From the NCBI RefSeq assembly GCF_013376005.1, contig NZ_JABMJK010000012.1, positions 1 through 64,000 on the forward strand: DNA of 64,000 nucleotides, given 5' to 3'. The DNA is from Duganella sp. SG902. GTDB lineage: Bacteria > Pseudomonadota > Gammaproteobacteria > Burkholderiales > Burkholderiaceae_D. Below the pieces are notes generated by a model. That model did no database searches. It was not told where the DNA came from and was given only the letters and a program-made list of their open reading frames with translations. Positions 8,488 through 62,880 of this stretch are shown piece by piece (the stretch's first letter is position 1; each line of letters begins with the position of its first letter). The position numbers were made by a program, and so were the translations under genes.

Positions 8488-9058
8488 GCATTTGATTATC
8501 AAGGGCCGTGAAGTAGTGGAAGACGACTGGCAGGTGCTGCGTCTGGCCGAGCCGGTGGACGGCGCGCCGCCGCACGATCCGGCTACCGTGTCGGTCCCCG
8601 CCGGCAAATTCATCGTGCCACTGAGCCTGTGGCTGGTGCAGCGCGAGGTGCTGGCCGCGCGCACCGCCGCCGGCGAGATCGCCGTGTGGATCGCCTCCGA
8701 CGAGCGTCCCGAAACGCTGAAAGGCCTGCTGGACCAGTTCCCGCTGATCGCCGTCGACTTCCCGAAATTCACCGATGGCCGCGGCTATTCGATCGCCTAC
8801 AACCTGCGCACCCGCCTGGGCTGGACCGGCGAACTGCGCGCCATCGGCGACGTGCTGCGCGACCAGCTGTTCTCGATGCGGCGCGTGGGCTTCGACGCCT
8901 ACTCGGTGCGCGCCGACCGCGATCCGCACGACGCGCTGAAAGGCCTGTCCGATTTCTCCGAAACCTATCAGGCGTCGGTCGATCAGAAAGTGCCGCTGTT
9001 CCGCCGCCACGCGCGCCCCGCGCCGGTGGTGGCCAACAACGACGGCGCCGGCATTTGA
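8480..9058 (+). CDS. DUF934 protein, sulfite-reduction accessory
   Basis: A 192-residue soluble protein of the DUF934 (PF06073) family, found almost only between cysI and cysH in proteobacteria. Characteristic blocks are the WIASDERPETL strand-loop, FPKFTDGRGYSIAYNLRTRLGW and the conserved RAIGDVLRDQLFSMRRVGFDAYSV split across two helices. The biochemical role is not established; context suggests help in assembling or feeding electrons to CysI. I chose the ATG at 8480 because GGAGAGG sits 6 bases upstream. It overlaps the cysI stop, suggesting translational coupling. Confidence 0.88.
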   Translation: MSKHLIIKGREVVEDDWQVLRLAEPVDGAPPHDPATVSVPAGKFIVPLSLWLVQREVLAARTAAGEIAVWIASDERPETLKGLLDQFPLIAVDFPKFTDGRGYSIAYNLRTRLGWTGELRAIGDVLRDQLFSMRRVGFDAYSVRADRDPHDALKGLSDFSETYQASVDQKVPLFRRHARPAPVVANNDGAGI

Positions 9059-9069
9059 TTGGAGTAGTG

Positions 9070-9783
9070 ATGAGTGACCTGAGCAAGCTGATTGCGGACA
9101 CGCGCGCCACGCTGTCCCGCATCGCCAGCGATTTCAGCCCCGCCGTCTTCGCCTCCTCGCTGGCGGCCGAGGACATGGTGCTGACCGACCTGATACTGAA
9201 GGGCGGCTACGACATCGGCATCTTCTCGCTTGAAACCGGCCGCCTGCACAAGGAAACGCTGGCCATGCTGGACAAGGTGAAAGCGCACTACGGCTACGAG
9301 ATCGCGGTGTTCAAGCCGCAGGCCGAGGCGGTGGAGGCCTACGTGGCGCAGCATGGCCTGAACGCCTTCTACAACAGCGTGGAGATGCGCAAGGAATGCT
9401 GCCGCATCCGCAAGGTCGAGCCGCTGGGCCGCGCCCTGCTGGGCAAGAAGGCCTGGGTCACCGGCCAGCGCCGCGCGCAAGCCGCCACCCGCACCTCGCT
9501 GATGGTGGAGGAGGACGATCCGGCGCACTTCATGACCAAGTTTAATCCGCTGGCCGACTGGTCGGAGGAGGATGTGTGGAACTACATCCGCGAGAATAAC
9601 GTGCCGTACAACGCGCTGCACGATCAGGGTTATCCGTCGATCGGCTGCGAGCCCTGCACCCGCGCCATCCAGCCAGGCGAGGACGTCCGCGCCGGCCGCT
9701 GGTGGTGGGAGAATCCGGAATCGAAGGAATGCGGCCTGCACGTGGTCGACGGTAAACTGATACGCATTAAATCCGTGGCCTGA
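9070..9783 (+). CDS. cysH: Adenylyl-sulfate (APS) reductase, CysH family
   Basis: Reduces activated sulfate to sulfite using thioredoxin. The 237-residue protein starts at ATG 9070 after GGAGTAGTG. It has the PP-loop-like N-terminal fold (FASSLAAEDMVLTDL, SLETGRLHKETL). It also carries the four cysteines that bind a [4Fe-4S] cluster in APS reductases: Cys110-Cys111 (KECCRIRKV) and Cys193/Cys196 (IGCEPC), plus the C-terminal catalytic ECGLHV motif. Enterobacterial PAPS reductases lack the CC/CxxC pairs, so the substrate is most likely APS rather than PAPS. That fits the lack of a cysC kinase nearby and CysN ending without a kinase domain. A palindromic repeat begins two bases after the stop. 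Confidence 0.94.
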   Translation: MSDLSKLIADTRATLSRIASDFSPAVFASSLAAEDMVLTDLILKGGYDIGIFSLETGRLHKETLAMLDKVKAHYGYEIAVFKPQAEAVEAYVAQHGLNAFYNSVEMRKECCRIRKVEPLGRALLGKKAWVTGQRRAQAATRTSLMVEEDDPAHFMTKFNPLADWSEEDVWNYIRENNVPYNALHDQGYPSIGCEPCTRAIQPGEDVRAGRWWWENPESKECGLHVVDGKLIRIKSVA

Positions 9784-9784
9784 T

Positions 9785-9862
9785 GTCATTCCCGCGAAGG
9801 CGGGAATCCATAGGCCACGTCCGAAGTTACTCAGCATGGATTCCCGCCTTCGCGGGAATGAC
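9785..9862. repeat. REP-like bipartite palindrome, copy 1 (cysH-cysD gap)
   Basis: Two perfect inverted 27-bp arms (9785-9811 and 9836-9862) surround a 24-base spacer. Each arm begins or ends with GTCATTCCCGCG or its complement and is itself a small hairpin (CCCGCGAAGGCGGG). The spacer, read on the minus strand, begins GCTGAG, as in the other copies. It fills most of the gap between two co-directional cys genes. Confidence 0.9.
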
Positions 9863-9883
9863 GATAACAAATAGGTTAGTTCA

Positions 9884-10813
9884 ATGAACGCTCTAGTAGA
9901 TAACAACGCGCACATGAATTCGCGCCACCTCGACGCACTGGAATCGGAAGCGATCCACATCATGCGTGAAGTCGCCGCCGAATGCAGCAACCCCGCCCTG
10001 CTGTTCTCGGGCGGCAAGGACTCTGTGGTCCTGCTGCGCATCGCGGAGAAGGCTTTCCGTCCTGGTAAATTCCCGTTCCCGTTGGTGCACGTCGACACCG
10101 GCCACAATTTTGAGGAAGTCATCACCTTCCGCGACAAGCGCGTGGCCGAACTGGGCGAGCGCCTGATCGTCGGCTCGGTGGAAGAGTCGATCCGCAAGGG
10201 CACCGTGCGCCTGCGCAATCCGCAAACCGATTCGCGCAACGCCGCGCAGGCCGTGACGCTGCTGGAAACCATCGCCGAACACGGCTTCGACGCCTGCATC
10301 GGCGGCGCCCGCCGCGATGAGGAGAAGGCGCGCGCCAAGGAGCGCATCTTCTCCTTCCGCGACGAATTCGGCCAGTGGGATCCAAAGTCGCAGCGCCCCG
10401 AACTGTGGGACCTGTATAACACCCGCGTGCACCCGGGCGAGAACATGCGCGTGTTCCCGATCTCGAACTGGACCGAGCTGGATGTGTGGCAGTACATCGC
10501 CCGCGAAAAGCTGGAACTGCCGCCGATCTACTTCGCGCACGAACGCCAGGTCATCCCGCGCAACGGCCTGCTGGTGCCGCTGACCGACCTGACCCCGGCG
10601 CGCGAAGGCGAAACCGTCGAAACCCAGGTGGTGCGCTTCCGCACCGTGGGCGATATCTCCTGCACCTGCCCCGTGTCCTCGGACGCGGCGACCGTGGAGC
10701 AGATCATCGCCGAAACCGCGATCACGCAAGTGACCGAACGCGGCGCCACCCGCATGGACGACCAGACGTCCGAAGCCTCGATGGAAAAACGTAAAAAAGC
10801 AGGATACTTCTAA
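9884..10813 (+). CDS. cysD: Sulfate adenylyltransferase subunit 2 (ATP sulfurylase small subunit)
   Basis: Catalyses ATP + sulfate to APS + PPi together with the GTPase CysN. The 309-residue product has the PP-loop FSGGKDSVVLLRIAEKAF (SGGKDS at 42-47), LHVDTGHNF-type strand (PLVHVDTGHNFEEVI), the conserved GGARRDEEKARAKER stretch and FPISNWTELDVW, all typical of CysD. ATG 9884 is used; an alternative ATG lies at 9914. The stop codon overlaps the cysN start by one base (TAATG), so the subunits are translationally coupled. Confidence 0.96.
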   Translation: MNALVDNNAHMNSRHLDALESEAIHIMREVAAECSNPALLFSGGKDSVVLLRIAEKAFRPGKFPFPLVHVDTGHNFEEVITFRDKRVAELGERLIVGSVEESIRKGTVRLRNPQTDSRNAAQAVTLLETIAEHGFDACIGGARRDEEKARAKERIFSFRDEFGQWDPKSQRPELWDLYNTRVHPGENMRVFPISNWTELDVWQYIAREKLELPPIYFAHERQVIPRNGLLVPLTDLTPAREGETVETQVVRFRTVGDISCTCPVSSDAATVEQIIAETAITQVTERGATRMDDQTSEASMEKRKKAGYF

Positions 10814-42768: not shown

Positions 42769-45700
42769 TCATTTGACCTTGTTCGGGAAGGCCGGATGCA
42801 CAGGCCGCACCGGCGGATTCTTCGCCAGTTCGGCCTTGATGACTTCAATCGCTTTTTCCAGTTGCGGATCGCGGCCTGCGATGACGTCGGCCGGATTCTG
42901 ATCCACTTCGATGTCCGGCGCCACGCCTTCGTTCTCCACGCCCCAGCCTTTGTCGCGGGTCCAGAAGGCCAGGTTGGGCGCGGTGATGGTGCCGCCATCC
43001 AGCAGCACCGGGAAGCCGAGGATGCCCACCAGCCCACCCCACGTGCGCTTGCCGATCAGCGGTCCCATTTTATTTTGACGGAACATCCACGGCAGCAGGT
43101 CGCCGCCGGAACCCGCCGTTTCATCGATCAGCATCGCGCGCGGCCCCTGGATCGATGCCGATGGCGTTTTCATGTCGGCGCCATAGCGCATGGTCCACCA
43201 GGCGATTTCCTTCTTCTGCAAAATCTCCAGGTAGTAATCGGCCACGCTGCCGCCGCCGTTGAAACGCTCGTCGATGATGACGGCGTCCTTGTCGGCTTGC
43301 GGGAAGAAGTAGCGCTTGAAGTAGGTATGGCCCAGCGTCGCGGTGTTCGGCACGTAGACGTAGGCCACACGGCCGCCGGTTGCCGCGTTGACTTTGCGGA
43401 TATTCCCTTCGATCCAGTCGCGGTTGCGCAGCGCGTCCTCGGCGGCGACCGGCACCACGGTGATGGTGCGCGATTTGCTGCCATCGGCGTTGGGGCCGAC
43501 GGTGATGTCGATGGCCTTGTTGGCGGTGTTTTCGAAAGCGCTGTACAAATTGGTCTCCGCCCGCAGCTGCTTGCCATCCACCGCCAGCAGGTACTCGCCA
43601 GCCTTGACGTTGAGGCCCGGTTCCGTCAGCGGCGCGCGCAAGGCCGGGTTCCAGTTCAAGCCGCCGTAGATTTTCTTGAAGCGATAGCGGCCCTCGCTGA
43701 TTTCGTAGTCGGCGCCCAGCAGGCCGCCCGGCACCGGCTTGGCGTCGGTGAAGAAGTCGCCGCCGCCACCCCGATGATGGCCGACACCCAATTCGCTGCA
43801 CAGCCACTGGATCACGCGGTTCAAATCGGCGCGGCTGGACAGCTCCGGCAGGAACTGCGCGTACTTGGCGCGCATCTTGTTCCAATCGGCGCCATGCATG
43901 CCGGGATCGTAGAAGTAGTCGCGGTTGATGCGCCATGCCTCGTTGAAGATCTGCGCCCACTCCGCGCGCGGCTCTGCGCGCACTTCGATGGCCTCCGCCT
44001 TGACCTTGCCCTCGCCCGGCGTCAGCGTCTTGGCGGTGGCGCTGCCCATGGCCCAGGCCTCCTTCAAGCGGTACAGCAGCTTCTTGCCATCGGAAGAGAC
44101 TTCATATTGATCGGCTTCGGCCAGCAAGGTCTCGGCCTTGCGGTCCTTCAGGTCGAAACGCTGGATCGCCTTCTTGCCGTCGCTCTCGCGCAGGAAGAAG
44201 ATCTGGCCGGCCTCGCCGGTCTGCAGGTCGGACAGCTGAGCGGCGGGAATCGGCAGGTCGACGATGCGGGTGTCGATGCCCTCGAAGTCGATGCCGATCG
44301 GCGCCACCGGCGTCACCGTGACTTTGGGGTCGTCGCGGCCGGTCTTGGGATCGACCTTGGGCGATTCCGCCTTGGCGGAGGTGGCGCCGACCGCCGCAGC
44401 GGGTGGCGCCGGCGGCGCGCCCTTCTCCTCGTCGCTTTCCTTGATCAGTGGCGATGGCAGGTCGCGCCGCAAGGTCGCCATCCAGATCGTGCGCGTGACG
44501 CGGTTATCCTCGTTCTGCTGCGAGAACCAGTTGTTGCTTGGCCCCGCGTTGGTCGAGGCGAAGAAATACAGATACTTGCCGCTCTTGTCGAACACCGGAT
44601 CGACCACGTCGGACAGGCCATCCGTCACCTGCCACGACTTGTTCTGCTCCAGCGAGTAGATGTAGGCGCTGCGCGTGTACGTCATCGAATTGAGCGCGTA
44701 GGCGATCCAGCGCGAGTCCGGCGCCCACGCGGCTTGCAGCGTCTTGTTCACGCCGTACAGCGGTTCCGAGGCGATCTTCTTGATCGCACCCGAGGCCACG
44801 TCCAGCACGTACAACGTCCAGGAGTTATCGGTGTAGGCGATCTTCTTGCTGTCCGGCGACCATGCCGGATTGTCGTAAAAGCCCGCGCCGGTCAGTTTGT
44901 ACTTGCGCGGCTCGCTCTTGCCATCCTGCGCGCGGATGTGCAGCGCGTACTCGCCGGATTCGTCGGAGAAGTAAGCCACCGAGCGGCCATCGGGCGACCA
45001 TGCCGGCGAGCGTTCGTGCACGGCCGGAGTCTGCGTCAGATTGCGCACATCGCCCTTGTCGGCGGGGATGGTGACGATCTCGCCACGGAACTCATAGGCC
45101 ACCCGCGCGCCCGACGGCGAGATCGAGGCATTGCGGATATATTTGGCGCCGCTGACCCAGCGCGGGCGCGACAGCCCGAGGTCGGCGTTGACGCCGATGG
45201 TGAGCTTGCGCGCCTGCCCGCTGGCCAGGTCCAGCGCGTGCAGGTATCCGGCCTGCTCGTAGACGACGCGGTCGCCGGATGCCGATGCGTTCAGCACCGG
45301 GAAGTCGGTGTGGCGGGTCAGCGCGCGCACCGCCCTGGTCTTCACGTCGTAGGCGTACAGGTTGAATTCACCATCGCGGTCGGAACGGAAGTAGACGGTG
45401 TCGCCGATCCAGACCGGATCGACATCGTTGGCGCCGCCGTTCGGCTGGGGGATGCTGACCACCGTCTTGTCGCCGCGATTGAACAGCCAGAGGATGGAGT
45501 GGGTGCCGCCGCGATAGTGCTTCCACTGCAGGAAGGCCGGCGAGAACGGGTTGTAGACGATCTGCTTGCCGTCCGGCGACCATGCCGCGCGCGCGGCGTT
45601 CGGCACTTCCAGCTGGGTCTCGACACCGCCGCCGACCGGCACAGTGAACAGCTTGCGGAAGCGGTTGTTGAAGGCCGCGCGCGGCGACGTGAACATCACC

Positions 45701-46080
45701 GCCTGGCCGTCCGGCGTGAAGGACTGCACCACGTCCGCGCCCGGGTGCCACGTCAGGCGTTTTGGCACGCCGCCCTCGATGGGCAGCAGGTAGACATCGG
45801 TATTGCCGTCGACCTGCGCGCTGTAGGCGAGCAGTTTTCCATCGGGCGAAAACACCGGGTTCGATTTCTCGCCCGGATCGGAAGTGAGACGACGCGGCGC
45901 GCTGCCGTCCGCATTGGCCAGCCAGACATCGCCGGCGTAAATGAACGCCAGGTGATGCGCGGACAGCGCCGGTTCAGTGAGCATGCGGGTGTCGCTGGTG
46001 TTCGGCAAAGCCACCGCCGGTGCGGCGGCGGCCAGCGCCAGCAGAACGCCGGCCATGGCGCGCGCTATCACGTGCTTCAT
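42769..46080 (-). CDS. Exported Tricorn-like S41 protease, paralogue A
   Basis: A 1103-residue protein with a signal peptide (to about ALPN), so probably periplasmic. The N-terminal two-thirds are WD40/PD40-like beta-propellers with repeated WSPDGK/FSPDGK motifs, as in Tricorn core protease. A Pro/Ala-rich linker (about 545-575) leads to the C1 domain, a PDZ-like domain and the S41 catalytic domain. Candidate catalytic residues are His in GVGHHRGGGG, the nucleophile Ser991 in ETAGSGGD and Glu in GVENEGVAPD. The residue after the Ser is Gly, not the Asp of archaeal Tricorn. It starts nine bases after paralogue B, so the two form an operon. Confidence 0.9.
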   Translation of the reverse strand: MKHVIARAMAGVLLALAAAAPAVALPNTSDTRMLTEPALSAHHLAFIYAGDVWLANADGSAPRRLTSDPGEKSNPVFSPDGKLLAYSAQVDGNTDVYLLPIEGGVPKRLTWHPGADVVQSFTPDGQAVMFTSPRAAFNNRFRKLFTVPVGGGVETQLEVPNAARAAWSPDGKQIVYNPFSPAFLQWKHYRGGTHSILWLFNRGDKTVVSIPQPNGGANDVDPVWIGDTVYFRSDRDGEFNLYAYDVKTRAVRALTRHTDFPVLNASASGDRVVYEQAGYLHALDLASGQARKLTIGVNADLGLSRPRWVSGAKYIRNASISPSGARVAYEFRGEIVTIPADKGDVRNLTQTPAVHERSPAWSPDGRSVAYFSDESGEYALHIRAQDGKSEPRKYKLTGAGFYDNPAWSPDSKKIAYTDNSWTLYVLDVASGAIKKIASEPLYGVNKTLQAAWAPDSRWIAYALNSMTYTRSAYIYSLEQNKSWQVTDGLSDVVDPVFDKSGKYLYFFASTNAGPSNNWFSQQNEDNRVTRTIWMATLRRDLPSPLIKESDEEKGAPPAPPAAAVGATSAKAESPKVDPKTGRDDPKVTVTPVAPIGIDFEGIDTRIVDLPIPAAQLSDLQTGEAGQIFFLRESDGKKAIQRFDLKDRKAETLLAEADQYEVSSDGKKLLYRLKEAWAMGSATAKTLTPGEGKVKAEAIEVRAEPRAEWAQIFNEAWRINRDYFYDPGMHGADWNKMRAKYAQFLPELSSRADLNRVIQWLCSELGVGHHRGGGGDFFTDAKPVPGGLLGADYEISEGRYRFKKIYGGLNWNPALRAPLTEPGLNVKAGEYLLAVDGKQLRAETNLYSAFENTANKAIDITVGPNADGSKSRTITVVPVAAEDALRNRDWIEGNIRKVNAATGGRVAYVYVPNTATLGHTYFKRYFFPQADKDAVIIDERFNGGGSVADYYLEILQKKEIAWWTMRYGADMKTPSASIQGPRAMLIDETAGSGGDLLPWMFRQNKMGPLIGKRTWGGLVGILGFPVLLDGGTITAPNLAFWTRDKGWGVENEGVAPDIEVDQNPADVIAGRDPQLEKAIEVIKAELAKNPPVRPVHPAFPNKVK

Positions 46081-46089
46081 ATCGTCTCC

Positions 46090-49000
46090 TTATTTCAATG
46101 CGGGGATCACCTGCGGTTGATACGGGTTGACTGGTTTCTCTTTCAGCTTTTTCTCCAGCAGGTCCAGCGCCACTTCCAGCTGGCGATCCTGGCCCTGGTA
46201 GGTGGCGTGCGGCGGATTGTCGACCACCACGTCCGGCGACACGCCCACGCCTTCGATCAGCCACTGACCGTCCTGCGTGTTGAACTGGCCCATCTCCGCC
46301 ACGCGCGCCATGCCGTTGTCGCTGAGACCATTGTTATCGCTCAGCCAGACGCCGGCACCGGCGGTGCGCTTGCCGACCAGCGGCGCCAGTCCAAGCGCCT
46401 TGACGCCGGCCGCGAAGGTCTCGCCGTCCGAATAGGTGTATTCGTCGATCAGCACCACCAGGTGGCCGCGGAAGGTGTTCTGCATGTTCGGCGACGGCTG
46501 CACGCCCGGCGGCGCCCAGAACGCCCACGCCTTGCGCAGCAGCTTCTCGATGATCCAGCTGTCGATATTGCCGCCATTGTTGCGGCGCACGTCGATGATC
46601 AGGCCTTCGCGATTGACATTGGCGTAGAAGTCGCGCGCGAACGATGCGATGTCGTTCGGTCCCATGGCGCGCAGGTGCAGGTAGCCGATGCGGCCTTTGG
46701 ACGCGGCCTCCACCTGGCGCGCGCGAGATTGCTCCCAATCGCTGTAGCGCAGCGCCGTCTGTTTGGCCATATTCACCGGCAGCACGATCACCTGGCGCGT
46801 ATCGGACTTGCGCTTCACCTGCAGCAGCACCTGCTTGTCGGCCTGATTGAGCAGCAGATCGGCGATGTCGCGCGCCTCCAGCACCGGCTTGCCGTTGACG
46901 GCGGTGATGACATCGCCCTCCTTCACATCCACGCCAGCCTGCGCCAGCGGGCCGCGTTGCGACGGCAGTTCCGGTTCGCTGGCGTAGATGTGGTCCACGC
47001 GGTAGCCCTCGGCGGTGCGCGACAGCAGCGCGCCCAGGCCGGCCGGCGTGCCCTCCGGCGGGGAGCGGCGGATGTCGCCGGGACGGATCTGCGAGTGCAG
47101 CGCGCCCACTTCGCTGATCATCATGCCCAGCACGTCGTCCAGTTCCGCGCGGTCGGTCACGCGATCGACCAGCGGCGCGTATTTGGCGCGCACGGCGGGC
47201 CAGTCGGCGCCGCGCATCTTCACGTCGTACAGGAAGTCGCGATGCATGCGCCATGCGTCGTTGAACATCTGCTTCCACTCCAGGCGCGGATTGGAGGTGA
47301 AGCTCCAGTCATCCACCTTGACCTTGGCCTTGCTGACGTCCGTTGGCGCCTTGGCGCCCGCGTCCACCACCAGCATGTCGCCAGCGCCGGCGGCAAAGGT
47401 GCGGTAGTAGACGTGCTTCTTGTCCAGCGACAGATCGTATTCGCGCACGCCGCTCGCGAACACTTCCGGCTGCGGGCCGTTGCTGGCGATGGCCAGCGTT
47501 TTCAGATTGGCCTTGCCGTCATTGCCGTCGGCATCGAGGAAGTACAGGCGCTTGTCGTCCATCTGCAGCGCGCGATAGTTACCGGCGGCCAGCGGCACCT
47601 CGTACAGGCGCTCGGCCAGGCCGGCGTAGACGATCGCCGGCAGCGCCTTGCCATCGGCCTTGGCGGCGGCTTTGGGCGCGCTCTTGGCGACGGCTTTTTC
47701 GGCGGCCTTCTCCGCCGCCTGCTCGGTCGCGCCCTCGGCCGGCTTGTCGCCCGGCTTGCTCAGCTCATCGTCCGGCTTGAACGGGAAGCGGTTTTCCGGC
47801 TGCAGCGCCAGCGCGTAGATGCCGGTGCGCTTGTCGAACACCGGCCCCATATTGCGGTCGCCCCACGGCGAGCCGTTCGCCAGCTGGAAGTTGCGGGCCG
47901 AGAGGAAGTACAGCCATTTGCCGTCCGGCGAGAACACCGGCGAACGCGAGGTGTAGCGGTCGCTGGTGACGAAGGCCAGCTGCTTGCTGTCGATGTTGTA
48001 CAAACCGATCTGGTTGCGCTGCTCGGTGCTGGCGGCGCGCACCAATGCCAGGTTTTTGCTGTCCGGCGACCACAGGATTTCGTCATAGTCGCCAAGGCCG
48101 GATTTGCCGGCGTCGTCGATCACGGTGTTGGCCCTGGTGGCCAGGTCCAGCAGCCAGAAACGGCCCTTCTTGTCGGTGTGGCCCAGCCAGCGGCCATCCG
48201 GCGACGGATACAAGGCCCAGCGGTGGTTGTTGCCATCCTTGGTCAGCTGCTCGCCCTTGCCCGAGCCATCGGCGGCGAATTTCCAGATTTCGTTCTCGCC
48301 CGTGGTGTCGACGATGGCGTAGATCGATTTGTCGTCATGGCTGAACACCGCCTGGCGCGCCCGCGCGCCCTCCGGTATCGCGATCTCCACGCGGCGCTGC
48401 GCGCCGGTGCCGGCCACGCTCACGCGGCCGCGCGCGGTCAATACCAGGCGCTCGGTCTTGCCGGCGATTTGCACATTGGTCAGGCTGTCCAGGGGGGAGC
48501 GGATCTGGCGCGTGCGCTGCTGGTCGAAGTCGGAGACCAGGTTGATCGCCAGCGGTTCATCCTTGCCGCCCGCCAGATCCAGCACGTGCAAATCGGCGCC
48601 CAGCTGGTAGACGATGCGGCCATCGCCGAGGGCGGCGTTGCGCACGTCCCAGGCCGTATGCCGCGTCAGCTGGCGCGCGTCGCTGCCGTCGGCGGCCATC
48701 GACCATAAGTTATCCGAGCCGCTGCGGTCGCTGATGAAATAGACGCGGTCCTGCCACCACATCGGACGCTTGTTGTTGCCGGCGTCGGAAGCCAGCAGCC
48801 GCACGGCTTCCGTATTGCCATCCACCTCGTAGCGCCACAGCTGCGCGTGGGCGCCGCCGCGATAAGCCTTGACGTTATCGTTGGTCAGCGCCAGGCCGTT
48901 GCGGGTGAAGTACAAGACCTTGCCGCTGTCGTCGAGCGCGGCGTCGTTGGCGTCGGCCAGCGGGAAGATGCGGCGTTGCAGGCTGTCCGGTTTGACGGCG

Positions 49001-49410
49001 GCGATCACGAAGCTGCGCCCGGGCCCCGTGCCGCTGGCCATGCTGACCAACACCTCGCCCTGCGCGCTCCAGCCCAGCACCGTGACGGCGCCGTTCTCGA
49101 ACGTGATGCGCTTGGGCAGGCCGCCCGCCAGCGGCATCACGTACGCTTCCTGCGCGCCCTCATAGGAGGCCGAGAAGGCCACCCACCGGCCATCGCGCGA
49201 CAGCGCGGCGTTGGTCTCCGCCGACGGATGCGTGGTCAGGCGCACGGCCTGTCCGCCATGCGCGCCGGTGCGCCACAAGTCGCCTTCGGCGGTGAACACG
49301 ACGTTGTCGCCACGGATGGCGGGGAAACGGTAATAGGCATCGCCGGCATGGGCGGAGGACAGCAAACCGGCGGACATCAACAGCAGGGCAAGCGGGCGGG
49401 ACAGATTCAT
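46090..49410 (-). CDS. Exported Tricorn-like S41 protease, paralogue B
   Basis: A 1106-residue paralogue of its downstream neighbour, with a signal peptide ending SSAHAGDA. Beta-propeller repeats (WSPDSKNLAL, FSPDGKWLYF) occupy the first half, followed by an Ala/Lys-rich insertion (near 540-580), a PDZ-like domain (VKEGDVITAVNGKPV) and an S41 domain. The catalytic triad fits Tricorn more closely: His in GALHSQIRPGD, Ser994-Asp995 in YTYSDGETFAAG and Glu in LIEGVGVSPD. It should degrade peptides in the periplasm. It is the first gene of the pair and is preceded by 96 bases that also hold the clpA terminator. Confidence 0.91.
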   Translation of the reverse strand: MNLSRPLALLLMSAGLLSSAHAGDAYYRFPAIRGDNVVFTAEGDLWRTGAHGGQAVRLTTHPSAETNAALSRDGRWVAFSASYEGAQEAYVMPLAGGLPKRITFENGAVTVLGWSAQGEVLVSMASGTGPGRSFVIAAVKPDSLQRRIFPLADANDAALDDSGKVLYFTRNGLALTNDNVKAYRGGAHAQLWRYEVDGNTEAVRLLASDAGNNKRPMWWQDRVYFISDRSGSDNLWSMAADGSDARQLTRHTAWDVRNAALGDGRIVYQLGADLHVLDLAGGKDEPLAINLVSDFDQQRTRQIRSPLDSLTNVQIAGKTERLVLTARGRVSVAGTGAQRRVEIAIPEGARARQAVFSHDDKSIYAIVDTTGENEIWKFAADGSGKGEQLTKDGNNHRWALYPSPDGRWLGHTDKKGRFWLLDLATRANTVIDDAGKSGLGDYDEILWSPDSKNLALVRAASTEQRNQIGLYNIDSKQLAFVTSDRYTSRSPVFSPDGKWLYFLSARNFQLANGSPWGDRNMGPVFDKRTGIYALALQPENRFPFKPDDELSKPGDKPAEGATEQAAEKAAEKAVAKSAPKAAAKADGKALPAIVYAGLAERLYEVPLAAGNYRALQMDDKRLYFLDADGNDGKANLKTLAIASNGPQPEVFASGVREYDLSLDKKHVYYRTFAAGAGDMLVVDAGAKAPTDVSKAKVKVDDWSFTSNPRLEWKQMFNDAWRMHRDFLYDVKMRGADWPAVRAKYAPLVDRVTDRAELDDVLGMMISEVGALHSQIRPGDIRRSPPEGTPAGLGALLSRTAEGYRVDHIYASEPELPSQRGPLAQAGVDVKEGDVITAVNGKPVLEARDIADLLLNQADKQVLLQVKRKSDTRQVIVLPVNMAKQTALRYSDWEQSRARQVEAASKGRIGYLHLRAMGPNDIASFARDFYANVNREGLIIDVRRNNGGNIDSWIIEKLLRKAWAFWAPPGVQPSPNMQNTFRGHLVVLIDEYTYSDGETFAAGVKALGLAPLVGKRTAGAGVWLSDNNGLSDNGMARVAEMGQFNTQDGQWLIEGVGVSPDVVVDNPPHATYQGQDRQLEVALDLLEKKLKEKPVNPYQPQVIPALK

Positions 49411-52437: not shown

Positions 52438-52641
52438 ATGGCAACTGGTACTGTTAAGTGGTTCAATGATTCCAAAGGTTTTGGCTTCATCACTCCAGAT
52501 GACGGCGGCGAAGATTTGTTCGCTCACTTCTCCGCAATCAACATGAACGGTTTTAAGACCCTCAAAGAAGGTCAAAAAGTTCAGTTCGAAGTCACGCAAG
52601 GCCCTAAAGGCAAGCAAGCTTCCAACATCCAGTCGGCTTAA
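52438..52641 (+). CDS. Cold-shock protein, CspA family
   Basis: A 67-residue single cold-shock domain that binds single-stranded RNA and DNA. RNP1 is [10 protein letters not shown] and RNP2 is DLFAHFSAI; the start [17 protein letters not shown] is standard for the family. Conserved aromatic residues Trp8, Phe15, Phe17 and Phe28 are present. ATG 52438 gives the usual length; a longer in-frame start 15 bases upstream is unneeded. It is monocistronic, with a strong hairpin terminator 20 bases after its stop. Whether it is cold-induced cannot be read from the sequence. Confidence 0.95.
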
Positions 52642-52661
52642 TCATTTAAGCCCACCGATGT

Positions 52662-52690
52662 AAAAAACCTCGCCCCGCGGGGTTTTTTTT
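52662..52690. terminator. Terminator after the cold-shock gene
   Basis: AAAAAACCTCG (52662-52672) pairs with CGGGGTTTTTT (52678-52688) around a five-base loop with one T-G pair, followed by more Ts. A-run and T-run on both sides make it able to act on both strands, so it may also serve the convergent gene ending at 52715. Confidence 0.9.
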
Positions 52691-52714
52691 CGCCCGCGCT
52701 GTTGTAAATAGCCG

Positions 52715-54412
52715 TCAGGAACGCGCCCACAGCGTTTCGACGCTGGCGGTTTTTTTGCGCAGCAAATCCTTGCTGTAACTGACCACCAGGGTCTTGACCA
52801 GGCCGCTGACGTAATCCTTGTCGCGCAGCTTGTCGCGGTAGTCGAAATCCGGCGGCAACTCCTGGGTTTCGAAGTTCAGGTCGATCACCAGCCAGGCCGC
52901 CAACTCGTCCACTGTCGCGCGGAAGCGCGCCCGCTCCTCCTCGCGCCGGACATAGTCCTGCGGCCGCGCGATCATCGCCCTGCCCGCCTCGCTCAGGTCC
53001 AGTATCTTGCGCACCGCCAGCAGCATGACGTACTTGGTCAGCACATATTTGCCGAGCAGTTCGTTGCTGAGCTGGCGCAGGCCGAGCTCCAGCGCGGCGG
53101 CGATTTCGTACAGCATCACGATCTTGTCGGCGCTGACCTCCGGCCGCCCGAACACCTCGTTGTAGCGCTCGTCGAAGACCTGGTATTTCCGGTGCGTGGT
53201 CCAGGGCTCGCCCAAATCGAAGGCGATCATCATCAGGCCGGCCACCTCGTTGGAAATCGTCACGCCGCCGTTGATCGGCTCGCCGCGTTTCACCGCCAAC
53301 GCATAGCTGCCGCGGTAGTGCTTCTTGAATTCGTGCTGCAAGCGGGTCTGGATCGGATGATTGGATTTGAAGTCGCGCGCCTTGACGCCGTTCTGGTTGT
53401 TGGAATAGTTGGTGATCAACCCGGCCAGCGCGGAGCCGGCTTCCACCTGGATGAACTTGGTCAGCAGACGCAGGTCCGGCGAGATCATCGCGCGATGGTC
53501 GTACAGGCTGTTGAGGCTCTGGCAGCCGTTGACCACGTAGTAACCTTCGATCCGCAGGGTGTCCTCGTCGTGGCGCACGGTTTTCGCCAGCACCGTGACG
53601 CCATTGTGGAACAGCGGGAAGGCCTTGTGCAGGCTGTGCTGCCTGATGCTGGAGGCGATCGCGCGGTTCACGGCGGTGTTGCCCAGATCGGCCCGCACAT
53701 TCACCGAAAACAAGGACTGGTCGGCAATGCCGGAAAGTTTGATCAGGTCGCTGGCCAGCACCGGGACGATGCTGGCCGAAGTGCCGGCGTCGACCACGTA
53801 GTCGGCAACCGTCAGGCCGGAGATATCGAACTCGGCCACGCCGGACTGGATCGGATCTTTCTGGTCGGAGATGTACGACTCCGCCAACTCGGCGATGCCG
53901 GCGAACTTGATCGCCGGGTGGGCGGCAAGGAAGGCCGCGCCGTTGGCGTCCAGCTCGAGATTGCAGACAAACACGCCGCGCACCTCGTATTCGCCAAGCC
54001 TGTCGACCACGGCGAGACGCGCGATCAGCGCGTTGGCTTGCGCGTCGCCGGCGCTCGCCATCAGGTTTTGCAGGGCGGGCGCCGAGCGGAACTGGGTCAG
54101 CGTGCCAGCGAACTCGCGCAGTTGCTTGTCGCCGACGCGCGCGGCGGCGCGCTGGCTGATCTTGCTTTGGAAGACGTCGATGGTGCCGGCGCCCTCGTTG
54201 ATGTAGATGCCGTCGATGCCCTTGTCGCCGGACTGGTCGCACACGCAGTCGGTGGCTTCCAGCTCATCGAGCCGGTAGTAGTTGACCAGATACCAGATGA
54301 GGAAGGCGGCACTCTCGGAGCGCCGCGCGCTCTGGTATGGCTTGATGCGCGCAAGCAGCGCGGAATAGCGCAAATCGATAGGCATGGCGACCGGGCCTCC
54401 GGGGAAATTCAT
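52715..54412 (-). CDS. AIPR-family protein with Mrr-like nuclease motif (candidate phage defence)
   Basis: A 565-residue protein of the AIPR family (abortive-infection phage resistance, PF10592). The AIPR core is recognisable by SLHKAFPLFHNGVTVLAKTV, YYVVNGCQSLNSLYDHR and TNYSNNQNGVKARDF. The N-terminus contains Glu33, Asp67 in KGIDGIYI and Gln82-x-Lys84 in DVFQSK. That spacing resembles the PD-(D/E)xK active site of Mrr-type endonucleases, so a nucleic-acid-cutting role is plausible. It stands alone between the cold-shock gene and icd with ordinary GC. The start is uncertain among 54385, 54412 and 54424; GGAGG lies five bases before 54412. No partner defence gene is adjacent. Confidence 0.78.
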   Translation of the reverse strand: MNFPGGPVAMPIDLRYSALLARIKPYQSARRSESAAFLIWYLVNYYRLDELEATDCVCDQSGDKGIDGIYINEGAGTIDVFQSKISQRAAARVGDKQLREFAGTLTQFRSAPALQNLMASAGDAQANALIARLAVVDRLGEYEVRGVFVCNLELDANGAAFLAAHPAIKFAGIAELAESYISDQKDPIQSGVAEFDISGLTVADYVVDAGTSASIVPVLASDLIKLSGIADQSLFSVNVRADLGNTAVNRAIASSIRQHSLHKAFPLFHNGVTVLAKTVRHDEDTLRIEGYYVVNGCQSLNSLYDHRAMISPDLRLLTKFIQVEAGSALAGLITNYSNNQNGVKARDFKSNHPIQTRLQHEFKKHYRGSYALAVKRGEPINGGVTISNEVAGLMMIAFDLGEPWTTHRKYQVFDERYNEVFGRPEVSADKIVMLYEIAAALELGLRQLSNELLGKYVLTKYVMLLAVRKILDLSEAGRAMIARPQDYVRREEERARFRATVDELAAWLVIDLNFETQELPPDFDYRDKLRDKDYVSGLVKTLVVSYSKDLLRKKTASVETLWARS

Positions 54413-54504
54413 CACGCCCTCCATGATAGATACCGGTCCGGTTAGACCATTCAATCCTCATCAAGGTTCGGCGCGATGAACGGCCGGCCCGGCCGCACTG
54501 CGGC

Positions 54505-55761
<1,257 letters not shown>

Positions 55762-59291: not shown

Positions 59292-60014
59292 TCATATATC
59301 TTGCGGCTCGGCAGGGGGTGTTTCGGGGGGCGTTGGTATAACGTTTTCATAGGGAGAGGCGGGCTCTTCCTTAGGGGGCGGGGCCTCTTTTTCGGGCTCG
59401 GGCTGGTCCGTTTTGGGGGGCGATATTGGTGCGGGTAAATTTTGTTGTCGCGAGCCCAAACCTTGTTGTAAATCAGATACAGGCTTGATAGTTTGTGCTT
59501 GATTTTCCCCTTTGGGACTGTCGGCCGCCATGGCGAATTTCCATTCGGAAATTCGAGTCTTGCCCTCAAACCCAGAATATCGTACAGGAAAGTTGCTTAT
59601 TTTCACGGGTTTTGCATCGGACAGGCTGTAGACCGCCAACACCCCCACTTTGTCTCCCAGGTAGACGATGCCCCACTCCGCCTTGCGGGTCATCGGATCG
59701 ACAAAAATCTTGCGCAGATGCCGGCGCGTGCCCGGGAAGCGCGGATCCTTGAGCAATTCCTTCAACGAGGGCGGCTGCGTCGGCTGGCCTTGCGGCGTGG
59801 CGTCCGCGTAGCTCTTCAGGGCGTCGCTAAAGGCGCCGCCGATATCGAGCAATTCCTGCTCCGCCTTGCTGCGCTGCAGCACCGAACCCAGTTTAATGGC
59901 CGACGCCGTTATCAAAGCGATAATGGCAACCAGGATAATCAGGCTCAGATAGGTGAAGCCGCGCGCGTTCCCGATGCGCCGCGCCCCATTCGGCAATGTT
60001 GACGCTTCGGCCAT
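59292..60014 (-). CDS. Atypical prepilin-like protein with Ser at position 5
   Basis: A 240-residue protein with an 18-residue leader, then a class III prepilin signal NARG|FTYLSLIILVAIIALI. The prepilin peptidase would cleave after the Gly. The mature protein has Ser at position 5 where nearly all type IV pilins and GspG have Glu. A GspG-like globular domain follows (KIFVDPMTRKAEWGIVYLGDKVGV), then a long Pro/Glu-rich tail from about residue 180. A missing Glu5 in T2SS is typical of the tip pseudopilin GspK, but the fold here is GspG-like. It is the last gene of the operon, one base after the GspG-like gene. Confidence 0.85.
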   Translation of the reverse strand: MAEASTLPNGARRIGNARGFTYLSLIILVAIIALITASAIKLGSVLQRSKAEQELLDIGGAFSDALKSYADATPQGQPTQPPSLKELLKDPRFPGTRRHLRKIFVDPMTRKAEWGIVYLGDKVGVLAVYSLSDAKPVKISNFPVRYSGFEGKTRISEWKFAMAADSPKGENQAQTIKPVSDLQQGLGSRQQNLPAPISPPKTDQPEPEKEAPPPKEEPASPYENVIPTPPETPPAEPQDI

Positions 60015-60015
60015 A

Positions 60016-60387
60016 TCACCAGTCGGCGTAAGGCTTGCCGGTGCGGTCGTTGCCGGCGGCGCCGCTGCGGATGTTGTAGACGCCGCCCTTGCTGCTGTCC
60101 TCCGGCGGCACGATGATCCAGCTGCTGTCGCTTTCGGTGATCGGGTCGTAGGGCAAGGCGCGCAGGTAGCGTTTTTCCACCAGTTGGTCGAGCGAGTCCG
60201 GATAGCGGCCGGTGTCGCCGTAATATTGGTCCAGCACCTGGCGCACGTTGCGCAGGTTGTCGGCCAGCACCACCTCCTTCGACTTGTCGATGCTGGGGAA
60301 GTAGCGCGGCACGGCCAGCGTCAGCATCAGGGCCACGATGCCTAGCACCACCAGCAATTCGATCAGTGTGAATCCTTTGCGCTTCAT
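60016..60387 (-). CDS. GspG-like major pseudopilin
   Basis: A 123-residue pseudopilin with [20 protein letters not shown] and Glu5 intact, followed by RYFPSIDKSKEVVLADNLRNVRQVLDQYYGDTGRYPDSLDQLV. That matches the GspG family (major pseudopilin of type II secretion) in length and fold. It lacks the typical C-terminal DG-rich calcium loop in recognisable form, ending instead AAGNDRTGKPYADW. The start may be GTG 60396 or ATG 60387; the ATG gives the usual leader. Its end is one base from the next gene. Confidence 0.9.
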   Translation of the reverse strand: MKRKGFTLIELLVVLGIVALMLTLAVPRYFPSIDKSKEVVLADNLRNVRQVLDQYYGDTGRYPDSLDQLVEKRYLRALPYDPITESDSSWIIVPPEDSSKGGVYNIRSGAAGNDRTGKPYADW

Positions 60388-60389
60388 GC

Positions 60390-60860
60390 TCACCACTTCT
60401 TGTAAGGTACGCCGTTCAGGCCGGTCTTCTCGCTGAGGCTGTAGACGTCGTAGACGTCCTCGCCCTCCTTCGGCTGGTCGGCCTCGCTGGCGTAGCTGCG
60501 TTTGCCCCAGGTCTGGGCGTCGCTCAGCATGCCGTCGGGATTGAACGGGTCGCGCGGCACGCGGCGCAGGAAGAATATCTTGGCATGCTTGGGGTTTTGC
60601 AGGTCCGGCACGCCCTCCACCAGCGTTTCCAGCGTCTTGGGATAGCCGCTGGCGCCCAGCGTCTTGGCGATGCGGCCCTGGTCGTAGGCCAGCTTGTAGG
60701 CGTCCAGCGCGTGGCGGATCTCGCGCAGCGACTCGCGCAGATCCTGCTCCTGCCGCCGCTGCACCACCACTTGCGCGGTCGGGATCACCAGGGCGCTGAG
60801 CAGGCCAAGGATGGCCAGCGTCACCAGCAGCTCGATCAAGGTGAAACCGCGCGTGCGCAT
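60390..60860 (-). CDS. GspG/H-like pseudopilin
   Basis: A 156-residue prepilin with [26 protein letters not shown] and Glu5 intact. The globular part ([36 protein letters not shown], then PRDPFNPDG) resembles GspG-type proteins with an alpha/beta-rich domain. It ends LNGVPYKKW. The stop overlaps the possible GTG start of the GspG-like gene. It follows the secretin gene by 13 bases, so it is translated from the same mRNA. Confidence 0.89.
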
Positions 60861-60873
60861 CGTCAGGCCCGGA

Positions 60874-62880
60874 TTACTGCTGCACCGGCGGCGCGGCTTC
60901 GGTGGCAGGCGATGGCTCGGTGGCGGGCGGCTGCACGGCCTGCGGCTGCGCGCCCTGGGTGGCCGGCAGCGGCGCGGGCTGCGACTGCGACAGCGGTGTG
61001 GCCTGCACCGGCGAAGGCTGCGGCGCGGCCGGCACGCCGCCGGATGGCGCGCCCGCTGGCGCTGGCGCTGGCGCGGGACGGGCCGGCGCCGAAGCTGGCA
61101 GCGGCACGGTGGCGCGCGGCGTCAGGTCCGGGCGGCGGCGGAAGCTGGCCTCGGTGCCGGCCGAGAATTCCGAAGCCGAAGCTTCCGGACGCTGCACGTT
61201 GCGGATCAGGTGCGGTGTGATCGACAACACGATCTCGGTTTTCTGGTTGTCGTCGCGCTGGCTGCCGAACAGGCGGCTGACGATCGGCAACTCGCTGAAG
61301 CCCGGAACCTTGTTGGACGAGTTGCGCTCCTCGTTGTTGATCAGGCCCGCCAGCACCTGGTTCTCGCCGTCCTTCAGCTGCAGCATGGTGGAGGCCTGGC
61401 GCGTGCCCAGTTGATACGCGGTGGTGCCGTTCTTGGTGGTGATGGTGCTGACCAGGTTACTGACCTCCAGCTGCATGCGGATCGCCACCTCGTTATTGAG
61501 GTAGATGGTCGGCTCGGCGTTCAGGGTCAGGCCGACGTCCACGTAGGTGACCGAGTCGCTGGCGAAGCCGCCCACGCCGGAGGACACGGTGGAGGTAATC
61601 ACCGGCAGCTTGTCGCCGATGACGATCTTGGCCTTCTCCTTGTTGCGCACGCGGATGCGCGGGTTGGCCAGCAGGTTGGAGTCCGAGTCGTTCTTGTTGG
61701 CGTTGATCGACAACTGCGCGCCGGTGACGCCGATGGTGCGCTGGTTCAGGTTATTCAGGTCGCGGATGGTGATGCCGGTGCCGCCCGAGGTGGACAGGGG
61801 CGCGAAGCCCAGCGTGGTCGGCCACACCACGCCCAGGTCCATCAGGCGCGAGCGCTTCACCTCGAGGATCTCCACCTCCAGCATCACCTCCGCTTCCGGC
61901 GCGTCCTGCAGCGTGATCAAACGCTCGGCCAGGCGGATCGCCTCGGGCGTGTCGCGCACGATGATGAGGTTCAGCTTTTCATCCACCACCACGTCGCGCG
62001 ACTTGAGGATGGTCTTGAGCGTGTTGGCCACCAGCTTGGCCTCGGCGTTGGCCAGGAAGAAGGTCTTGACCGTCATCTCCTGATATTCCTTCAGCTTGGC
62101 CGCGACGTTGGGGTAGATCAGGATGGTGTTGGCGTCCATGACCTGCTGCTCCAGCTGATTGGTGAGCAGCAGGAAGTAGATCGCCGATTCCACCGTGCTG
62201 TTCTTCAGCAGCACCGTGGTTTTCTGGTCGGTCTTCACGTCCTTGTCGAACACGAAGTTCAGGCCCGAACGGCGCGAGATCACTTCAAACACCTGCTTCA
62301 GCGGCGCGTCGCGGAACTCGATGGTGATCGGCTGCTTGTAGGCTTTCGACAGGCCCGACTCCACCGCCGGCGGCGCGGTCTTCTCGGCCACCTCGCGCAG
62401 CATGGCGCGCGCCTTGTCGTTGGTCGGCGATTCGGTCAGGATGGCGTTGAGCTTTTGTTTGGCCAGTTCGTATTCGCCCTTGTTGAAATGCTGGATGGCG
62501 GCTTCCATCAAGTTGGCCTGGCGCCCGTCGCGCTCCAGCGCTCGCAGGCCGGCGACGGCGCGCTCGTTCTGCGCGTCGAGACCCAGCACGCGGCGATAGC
62601 CCTGCTCCGCCTGCGCGGTCCGTCCCTCGGCCTGGTCGCGCTCCGCCGCCTCGAGGATGCGCTGGGTGGCGCGCTCCCGTGCGCTCAGGTAGGCGCTGCG
62701 ATACTGCGCATTGGTCGGATCGGCCTGCACGGCCTCCTGGTACTTGGCGAGGCCGGCTTCGACCTGGTTCTTCGCGATCAGGTCATTGCCGTCGCGGTAG
62801 GCCATTTGCGCGGCGCAGCCGCTCAGCAGGATCGCCAGCGCAGCGCAGCTGCCGAGTTTCTTCAGAGGGCTAGCCATCAC
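60874..62880 (-). CDS. GspD/PilQ-like outer-membrane secretin lipoprotein
   Basis: A 668-residue secretin forming the outer-membrane gate. A lipoprotein signal (lipobox LLSGC, Cys22) is followed by TPR-like repeats (about 30-170), STN and secretin-N domains (about 175-330) and the secretin domain (about 335-565) ending in [13 protein letters not shown] Pro/Ala-rich tail of about 90 residues follows. The TPR-containing, lipidated architecture differs from classical GspD and is closer to MshL-like secretins. It overlaps the upstream gene by four bases (ATGATGG). Confidence 0.93.

What the first reader, a model, noticed from the sequence alone, without database searches (positions are those of the whole stretch)
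52715..54412. Solitary AIPR protein with an Mrr-type Glu...GID...QxK motif
Seen: Glu33, Asp67 and Gln82-x-Lys84 precede a clear AIPR core. Known: AIPR proteins were linked to abortive phage infection, and QxK is the Mrr variant of PD-(D/E)xK nucleases. Inference: a single-gene defence system that cuts nucleic acid on infection. It sits between housekeeping genes with normal base composition, so it is not an obvious island.
Basis: partly seen in the sequence, partly recalled or inferred. Interest (0 to 1): 0.55.

Follow-up and report, generated by a model that had tools for sequence, protein, structure and literature searches.

The report
Solitary two-domain nuclease-type phage-defence gene
A single bacterial gene, apparently acquired from elsewhere and dropped between two housekeeping genes, encodes a protein that looks like a DNA-cutting enzyme joined to a nucleotide-switch-like domain, most likely used against viruses; it belongs to a known family whose mechanism is unexplained.

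Summary
The gene is real: 565 aa, window 52715-54412 (-), an AIPR/AbiU-family protein (PF10592 E 7.5e-27; PADLOC AbiU 2.4e-31) and the only AIPR found in its genome. Asp67 and Gln82-x-Lys84 are conserved; Glu33 is present but not conserved. AlphaFold (pLDDT 87) plus structural alignment make residues ~8-183 a PD-(D/E)xK nuclease fold (AF1548 Z 10.3, MspJI 8.7). The AIPR core, searched alone, aligns with ParB/sulfiredoxin proteins in 20 of 21 listed rows (top Z 6.5, below the tool's comfort level); profile comparison does not prove it. It is no core gene: of 25 relatives examined, none has it at this site. A sister branch lies near an Eco57I-type N6-methyltransferase (7 loci; 0 of 45 others). 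Best reading: a horizontally acquired solitary defence nuclease gated by a ParB/Srx-like sensor, working like a type IV restriction enzyme or SspE. Folds are predictions; nuclease activity, defence, gating and trigger are inferred. The nuclease-plus-AIPR architecture is already in print (PMC9708380). New member of a known family.

The parts
52715..54412 (-). AIPR/AbiU-family gene, 565 aa (possibly 556 aa from ATG 54385), stop included
53864..54391 (-). residues 8-183: N-terminal PD-(D/E)xK nuclease-like domain, Mrr-type (Asp67, Gln82-x-Lys84)
   Evidence: model; structural alignments; conservation; Mrr_cat below its cut-off, 9 of 70 AIPRs match it at E<=0.01
54161..54214 (-). codons 67-84: Asp67 just before a predicted strand (68-72); Gln82 and Lys84 on the predicted strand 77-84
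53390..53806 (-). residues 203-341: AIPR core, ParB/sulfiredoxin-like by predicted fold
   Evidence: Pfam AIPR 235-378
53513..53530 (-). codons 295-300, Asn295-Gly296-Cys-Gln298-Ser299: the place of DGQHR/DGQQR in DndB and GmrS
   Evidence: (best but not significant alignments)
53390..53401 (-). codons 338-341, Asn338-Asn-Gln340-Asn: falls on ENxQR of ParB in most of the structural alignments whose numbering I could check
52718..53137 (-). residues 426-565: helical C-terminal region, role unknown
52642..52714 (.). 73 bp between csp and the AIPR stop codon; no room for a partner gene
54413..54504 (.). 92 bp between the icd stop and the AIPR start; GGAGGG before ATG 54412

Best explanation
A horizontally acquired, single-gene anti-phage effector of the AIPR/AbiU family. 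An N-terminal Mrr-type PD-(D/E)xK nuclease is joined to a ParB/sulfiredoxin-like core that acts as the sensor or switch, and to a helical C-terminus that may make it oligomeric. Because it has no methyltransferase beside it to protect the host, the nuclease is probably off in healthy cells; the core would switch it on when it meets a feature of invading DNA (for example a base or backbone modification) or a nucleotide signal, so that it cuts the invader's DNA or, if unspecific, kills the infected cell. It would work like SspE or GmrSD/BrxU (ParB/Srx module plus nuclease) but with a different nuclease and order of domains. Shown by computation: family, domain folds (predicted), conservation, patchy distribution and site, absence of an adjacent partner gene. 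Inferred: nuclease activity, ligand binding, trigger, target, and defence.
For: Family. Nuclease fold: (AF1548 Z 10.3 over 114 residues, rmsd 3.1; MspJI 8.7; FokI 8.5; a Pyrococcus repair endonuclease 7.6; also the defence nucleases Card1, HamA, Shedu, Avs3 lower down). Motif kept; 9 of 70 AIPRs match Pfam Mrr_cat at E<=0.01, best 8.2e-8. ParB/Srx core: 20 of 21 listed rows (Z 2.3-6.5; assigned by title and recall, the 21st, Atu1540 at Z 3.7, has an uninformative title), and ParB, PadC, KorB, sulfiredoxin and SspE in the full-length search; in BFVD a phage 'sulfur modification protein' ranks 5th (E 1.4e-3). Alignment ends put Asn338/Gln340 on the Asn and Gln of ENxQR in 7bnr and 7bnk. Acquired. 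Setting of relatives: bacteriophage Fels-2 between the gpA-like gene and the portal gene Q; Eco57I-type methyltransferase within 5 kb in 7 loci of a sister branch; HSDR_N, Piwi, AbiEii, XhoI, NgoFVII-type neighbours elsewhere. Analogy: in SspE the DGQQR Arg is essential for GTP hydrolysis, which the paper couples to DNA cleavage (PMC13251355, title, abstract start and passages).
Against: Foldseek itself gave no PDB match under E 0.1 for either model; ParB/Srx Z stays under 8, where the tool warns of common arrangements, and the aligner only re-ranks Foldseek's first 1000. Profile comparison of AIPR with ParB, DndB and GmrS is not significant. 7o0n puts the ENxQR match one residue off. The position of the Arg that ends DGQHR/DGQQR is Ser or Thr in 70 of 70 AIPRs, so hydrolysis may be absent. 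Lys84 is Arg in 6 of 36 subfamily members and neither Lys nor Arg in 4 of 70, and one AIPR (L008) lacks Asp67 and Gln82. No neighbour recurs widely across the subfamily (families in 3 or more of 47 loci). Of the neighbours scanned in the window's own branch only one, in L021, is recognisable as restriction-like; the others are housekeeping or unknown. No defence model matched the other cargo of the icd-csp site (10 proteins scanned, PADLOC).
Confidence: 0.55

Rival explanations
1. Abortive infection by host damage: the nuclease cuts host DNA or RNA without specificity after a phage-made trigger, so the cell dies or goes dormant. The core senses a phage protein rather than DNA.
For: Family name and AbiU/AIPR history (PMC3506569, passages); solitary gene without an adjacent methyltransferase; structural neighbours include the defence nucleases Card1, HamA, Shedu and Avs3.
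Against: The sister branch lies near an Eco57I-type methyltransferase, which fits sensing of DNA modification better. No phage or toxicity data.
Confidence: 0.3
2. Former restriction-modification companion now on its own: it once worked with an N6-methyltransferase and is now an orphan that is idle or decaying.
For: Methyltransferase within 5 kb of all 7 sister-branch loci and in none of 45 others; no Eco57I C-terminal family match in the own genome, though no control rang; reading frame split in L034, L057 and L064.
Against: The window gene is intact and keeps the near-invariant residues; branches without the methyltransferase are large and spread over phyla, which does not look like decay.
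Confidence: 0.15
3. A DndB-like regulator: DNA-binding, nucleotide-sensing repressor with a nuclease-fold domain used only for DNA binding.
For: DndB is a ParB-like ATP/GTP binder and repressor (PMC12704722, passages); PMC3506569 puts the DndB N-terminus in the AbiU1/AIPR family; Lys84 is not universal.
Against: Asp67 and Gln82 are rarely lost and residue 84 is Lys or Arg in 66 of 70; no DndB-family match in the own genome (PF14072).
Confidence: 0.1
4. Housekeeping gene of the genus, unrelated to defence.
For: Normal base composition and codon use.
Against: No ortholog in 35 genus-mates, none at the site in the 25 relatives examined, and 3 of 397 other genomes of the phylum match the subfamily at E<=1e-60.
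Confidence: 0.02

Closest known systems
AIPR / AbiU family (Pfam PF10592; PADLOC AbiU)
   Same: Family match; same conserved core; the N-terminal Asp...GlnxLys motif is in most members looked at (13-15 of 16)
   Different: Solitary; belongs to a subfamily mostly without the methyltransferase; 63% identity to the nearest relative found (Caballeronia)
PoNe-AIPR two-domain protein noted in PMC9708380
   Same: PD-(D/E)xK domain plus AIPR, shared across phyla (passage)
   Different: The passages read give no mechanism and do not mention a ParB/Srx fold
SspE and GmrSD/BrxU (DUF262 proteins)
   Same: Would work alike: ParB/Srx module that reads modified DNA plus a nuclease (PMC4619093 and PMC13251355, passages; structural rows)
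   Different: Mrr-type nuclease at the N-terminus instead of an HNH nuclease after the ParB module; NGxQ-S/T instead of DGQQR; Z only 3.8 (SspE) and 2.9 (BrxU)
DndB / DGQHR family
   Same: NGCQS pairs with DGQHR in the best, not significant, profile alignment; fold match to a phage sulfur modification protein
   Different: No nuclease domain in DndB that I know of (recalled); final Arg of the motif missing here
MzaE of the Mza system
   Same: Weak model match E 0.0025
   Different: No gene of any kind fits between it and csp or icd

Membership tests
AIPR (PF10592) | Pfam match over the curated cut-off | tested here: met
   95.2 bits against 25
AbiU (PADLOC) | Match to the AbiU model | tested here: met
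   E 2.4e-31, model positions 185-458 of 537; PADLOC's own cut-off is not shown by the tool
AbiU (PADLOC) | Blocks phage growth | not testable with these tools
   needs phage challenge
PD-(D/E)xK nuclease, Mrr-type | Restriction-endonuclease fold | tested here: met
   AF1548 Z 10.3, MspJI 8.7, FokI 8.5 over residues ~8-183 of a predicted model
PD-(D/E)xK nuclease, Mrr-type | Asp ... Gln-x-Lys active-site residues conserved | tested here: met
   Asp67 and Gln82 15 of 16, Lys84 13 of 16; L008 lacks Asp67 and Gln82
PD-(D/E)xK nuclease, Mrr-type | Pfam Mrr_cat over the cut-off | tested here: inconclusive
   15.2 bits against 21 for this protein; 9 of 70 AIPRs match at E<=0.01
PD-(D/E)xK nuclease, Mrr-type | Cleaves nucleic acid | not testable with these tools
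   biochemistry needed
ParB/sulfiredoxin superfamily | ParB/Srx fold | tested here: inconclusive
   20 of 21 listed rows are of this superfamily by title and recall, one has an uninformative title; Z 2.3-6.5, under the tool's level of 8
ParB/sulfiredoxin superfamily | Sequence-profile similarity to ParB, DndB or GmrS | tested here: inconclusive
   No significant hhalign match; the best alignments with DndB and GmrS do pair NGCQS with DGQHR/DGQQR
ParB/sulfiredoxin superfamily | Binds an NTP | not testable with these tools
   binding assay needed
GmrSD type IV restriction enzyme | DUF262 plus DUF1524 (HNH) domains | tested here: not met
   Pfam scan up to E 1 lists neither
HEPN toxin (stated for the AIPR N-terminus in PMC3506569) | HEPN domain at the N-terminus | tested here: not met
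   The N-terminal domain is predicted as a mixed alpha/beta PD-(D/E)xK fold; no HEPN match in Pfam up to E 1
Mza system | Operon with mzaA-D partners | tested here: not met
   Neighbours are csp and icd with 73 and 92 bp between; csp, clpS, clpA and icd were named by eye
Restriction-modification system | Cognate methyltransferase beside the gene | tested here: not met
   None adjacent in the window (by eye); elsewhere 0 of 45 loci outside the sister branch in the DNA held

The most novel reading that the evidence does not exclude
AIPR proteins are nucleotide-switched DNA-clamp nucleases: the AIPR core is an unrecognised branch of the ParB-CTPase/sulfiredoxin fold that binds an NTP (or another ligand, since the catalytic Arg is replaced by Ser/Thr), closes on or slides along invading DNA, and releases the fused Mrr-type nuclease. 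That would turn a family called 'abortive infection' without a known mechanism into a ParB-like switch wired to a restriction nuclease, with a solitary form and a methyltransferase-linked form.
Probability: 0.25. Interest if true: 0.75.

Novelty: new member of a known kind. Interest (0 to 1): 0.43.

Why it matters
AIPR is a widespread defence-associated family for which I found no mechanism in the papers I could search. A residue-level model (Asp67/Gln82/Lys84 for cutting; Arg240, Asn270-Gly271, Asn295-Gly296-x-Gln298 and Asn338-x-Gln340 for the switch) makes it testable with a handful of point mutants and one NTP-binding assay. It also speaks against a printed statement that AIPR proteins start with a HEPN RNase domain (PMC3506569), at least for this protein, and offers a candidate nuclease fusion to add to the 2025 survey of the ParB fold (PMC12704722), in whose held text the word AIPR was counted 0 times.

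Tried and rejected
Core-gene reading: rejected by distribution. HEPN N-terminus: rejected. Glu33 as motif residue: rejected. Toxin-antitoxin pair: no room for a partner on either side. Trans pairing with an Eco57I-type methyltransferase in the own genome: none found, but the control rang nowhere, so open; two weak N6_Mtase matches over the cut-off exist. Trace of site-specific integration at the window site: no direct repeat seen by eye and alignment, no integrase; one genus-mate (L178) does have a tyrosine integrase beside icd. Sequence searches against solved structures gave nothing useful. The first viral scan with the single protein found nothing. Foldseek against PDB gave no significant match for either model. 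Profile comparison with ParB, DndB and GmrS gave nothing significant. Pattern scans: one promoter-like site (0.4 expected) inside the gene on the other strand and one terminator-like site (2.5 expected), so nothing to build on. One AIPR of 70 matched a cold-shock domain in Pfam; a pattern search did not show which. My first codon-usage figure used clpA out of frame; one search replaces it.

Selection effects: the 36-member set is the window protein plus 35 of the 47 loci L020-L066; 12 were left out as truncated, split, near-duplicate or distant. The genome scan that gave L020-L060 used two peptide patterns that include Asp59-Asp63-Asp67 and His269-Asn270. The 34 viral rows of the 70-member set were taken from 42 non-redundant ones that had been picked with patterns for NGxQ and NNG, so '70 of 70' for those core residues is partly by construction; L008, which lacks Asp67 and Gln82, L118 (QAD), and L006, L007 and L009 are not among the 70. 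The seven methyltransferases match the model by construction; the information is that the other 45 loci do not, with flanks of unequal length. Neighbour scans were of chosen, mostly large, genes, not of all.

Full report
What is there. The ORF at 52715-54412 (-) encodes 565 aa. It lies between csp (+, 52438-52641) and icd (-, 54505-55761; both named by eye from their translations), 73 bp from one and 92 bp from the other, with no space for a second gene. ATG 54412 follows GGAGGG; ATG 54385 follows GGAGG and fits the start of many relatives. Composition and codon use are those of the neighbourhood (GC 0.633, codon correlation 0.942). Pfam gives AIPR at E 7.5e-27 and Mrr_cat below its cut-off (E 0.024, residues 58-108). 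PADLOC gives AbiU at 2.4e-31. It is the only AIPR found in a 6.8 Mb genome in 47 contigs.

The motif. In 16 diverse AIPRs, the window's included, Asp67 is kept in 15, Gln82 in 15, Lys84 in 13, Glu33 in 1 (alignment); the exception for Asp67 and Gln82 is L008. In 36 members of the window's subfamily: Asp67 36, Gln82 36, Lys84 30 with Arg in 6, Glu33 18. In a 70-member set: Asp67 and Gln82 70 of 70, residue 84 Lys 61, Arg 5, Glu 3, Tyr 1, Glu33 14. How the sets were selected is told under Tried and rejected. The core has its own residues that are invariant or nearly so: Asn238, Arg240, Asn270-Gly271, Asn295-Gly296-x-Gln298, Asn338-x-Gln340.

The fold. AlphaFold with 36 sequences gave mean pLDDT 87.3, pTM 0.71. 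Asp67 sits just before strand 68-72, Gln82 and Lys84 on strand 77-84. Foldseek alone found no significant PDB match. The structural aligner, over 998 of Foldseek's first 1000 chains, gave for residues ~8-183 AF1548 (Z 10.3), MspJI (8.7), FokI (8.5), a Pyrococcus repair endonuclease (7.6), EndoMS (7.5), Card1 (6.7), HamA (6.2), and lower Shedu (4.9) and Avs3 (4.7); and for ~203-341 ParB (5.9), PadC (5.8), sulfiredoxin (5.1), KorB (4.5) and SspE (3.8). The core folded alone (pLDDT 86.5) gave 21 rows, one per entry: PadC 6.5, ParB proteins and Noc 6.3-4.7, sulfiredoxins 5.2-4.7, KorB 4.7 and 4.5, Atu1540 3.7, BrxU 2.9, SbnI 2.3. By their titles and my recall 20 of the 21 are ParB/Srx proteins; the title of Atu1540 names no family. 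Z is under 8, so this is a strong hint, not proof. In BFVD the full model matches a phage AIPR (E 1.6e-13), a separate 223-aa protein of the same phage (3.3e-5, 181 columns), and a phage sulfur modification protein (1.4e-3).

Residue register. In M. xanthus ParB (7bnr, 7bnk) the alignment ends at model residue 156 = chain residue 130; model 156 is Asn341. Numbering that sequence from the E93A mutation named in the title of 7o0n puts the Arg of ENLQR at 130. So Asn341 falls on that Arg and, if there is no gap, Asn338 and Gln340 fall on its Asn and Gln. 7o0n itself is one residue off. By recalled numbering 6sdk and 7bm8 agree. Profile comparison of AIPR with DndB (E 0.026, probability 1.9%) and GmrS (0.52) is not significant, yet the best alignments pair VNGCQSL with DGQHR and DGQQR. 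With ParB there is no such pairing. The last residue of the motif is Ser or Thr in 70 of 70 AIPRs, while the Arg of DGQQR is needed for GTP hydrolysis in SspE (PMC13251355, passages). Binding without hydrolysis, or another ligand, is therefore possible.

Acquired gene. Among 60 relatives (own genome counted) 8 match at E<=0.001; the 6 genus-mates among them, of 35, have only weak partial matches (23-33% identity). In 399 genomes of the order 6 match at 1e-10, own included; the other five are 25-34% identical. In 398 of the phylum 4 match the subfamily profile at 1e-60, own included; one of them has a stop inside. icd is found in 39 of 40 genus genomes, own included. I examined the icd-csp interval in 25 of the 39 relatives: 6 have a gap of 99-316 bp, one 938 bp, 16 have 1.5-5.7 kb, one (L178) has no csp within 10 kb, one ends at the contig end; no reading frame of 80 aa or more in these intervals matches the window protein. 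Of 20 cargo proteins scanned, 14 matched Pfam, among them acyltransferase, sugar epimerases, chromate transporter, beta-lactamase fold, peroxidase, histidine kinase, citrate synthase, and in L178 a tyrosine integrase and a primase-like protein; 6 matched nothing. Ten of the 20 were scanned with PADLOC and had no match. The window insert lies between the csp terminator-like sequence and the icd stop, without visible repeats. So the site is variable in the genus, not specifically a defence site.

Spread and setting. The subfamily reaches Pseudomonadota, Chloroflexota, Bacteroidota, Planctomycetota, Actinomycetota, Chlorobiota and others. The window protein groups with Caballeronia (63% identity; support 100/100). 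Chlorobaculum sits among Pseudomonadota on short branches, which points to transfer; the tool warns that such counts are no proof. More distant relatives occur on plasmids (81 records) and in phages (15 records), including Fels-2 between the gpA-like gene and gene Q, and relatives are in viral contigs. Methyltransferase homologues lie within 5 kb of the AIPR in 7 of 52 loci, the genome loci L051, L052, L053, L056, L060 and the plasmid loci L015, L016; the other 45 have none in the DNA held. L053 also has a XhoI-family nuclease. Other restriction- or defence-type neighbours: HSDR_N (L021), Piwi (L030), AbiEii (L033), NgoFVII-type (L059). The other scanned neighbours are housekeeping, mobile or unknown. 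In a clustering of the neighbours of 47 loci only four families besides AIPR occur in three loci, one of them that methyltransferase and two of them in near-identical loci.

How it most likely works. With no methyltransferase beside it, a constitutively active unspecific nuclease would harm the host, so the solitary form should be silent until triggered or should read a foreign mark. The core is the natural switch. I rate the nuclease fold at about 0.9, a defence role at 0.75, a ParB/Srx-type core at 0.6, and a nucleotide- or modification-gated mechanism at 0.4. Whether it restricts phage DNA or kills the cell is open.

What is known. AIPR is commonly encoded in RM operons (PMC2292703, figure legend passage). 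PMC3506569 (passages) places the DndB N-terminus in the AbiU1/AIPR family and states an N-terminal HEPN domain, which the model here does not support. PMC9708380 (passages) already describes an AIPR protein as a PD-(D/E)xK 'PoNe' domain plus AIPR, shared across phyla. GmrS and DGQHR were tied to ParB/Srx in PMC4619093 (passages). A 2025 survey of the ParB fold found a DndB-like ATP/GTP binder (PMC12704722, abstract and passages). I found no paper that puts AIPR itself in the ParB/Srx fold; searches: in a library of open-licence papers only, with capped lists in 17, 120 and 121 and only passages read. Since AIPR-DndB and DndB-ParB were both in print, the link could have been drawn before.

Verdict.

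Noticed in passing
L178:1432-2700 and 8061-10763 (genome G029): A tyrosine integrase gene directly behind icd and a DUF927/Toprim primase-like gene further on: an integrated element at the icd end in a genus-mate.
   Followed up: partly
icd-csp interval, L167-L186, L141, L156, L162-L164: The interval is a variable site in the genus, with 1.5-5.7 kb of varied cargo in 16 of 25 relatives examined.
   Followed up: partly
L051, L052, L053, L056, L060, L015, L016: A sister branch of AIPR lies within 5 kb of an Eco57I-type N6-methyltransferase in all seven loci; L053 also has a XhoI-family nuclease.
   Followed up: partly
BFVD A0A8S5R496 and A0A8S5R4D7 (Podoviridae sp. ct8nN1): Both match the model, one named AIPR (371 aa) and one of 223 aa aligned over 181 columns: possibly a split AIPR with the nuclease as a separate protein.
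   Followed up: no
L013, L103, L107, L010: AIPRs whose QxK has become QxE or QxY: candidates for an inactive nuclease.
   Followed up: no
L034, L057, L064: AIPR reading frame split in two; real breaks or assembly errors.
   Followed up: no
42769-46080 and 46090-49410 (-): Two tandem, similar-looking genes of about 1100 aa that look like tricorn/S41-type peptidases (by eye from the translations).
   Followed up: no
59292-62880 (-): A type II secretion or type IV pilus-like cluster: pseudopilin-like genes and a secretin-like gene (by eye).
   Followed up: no
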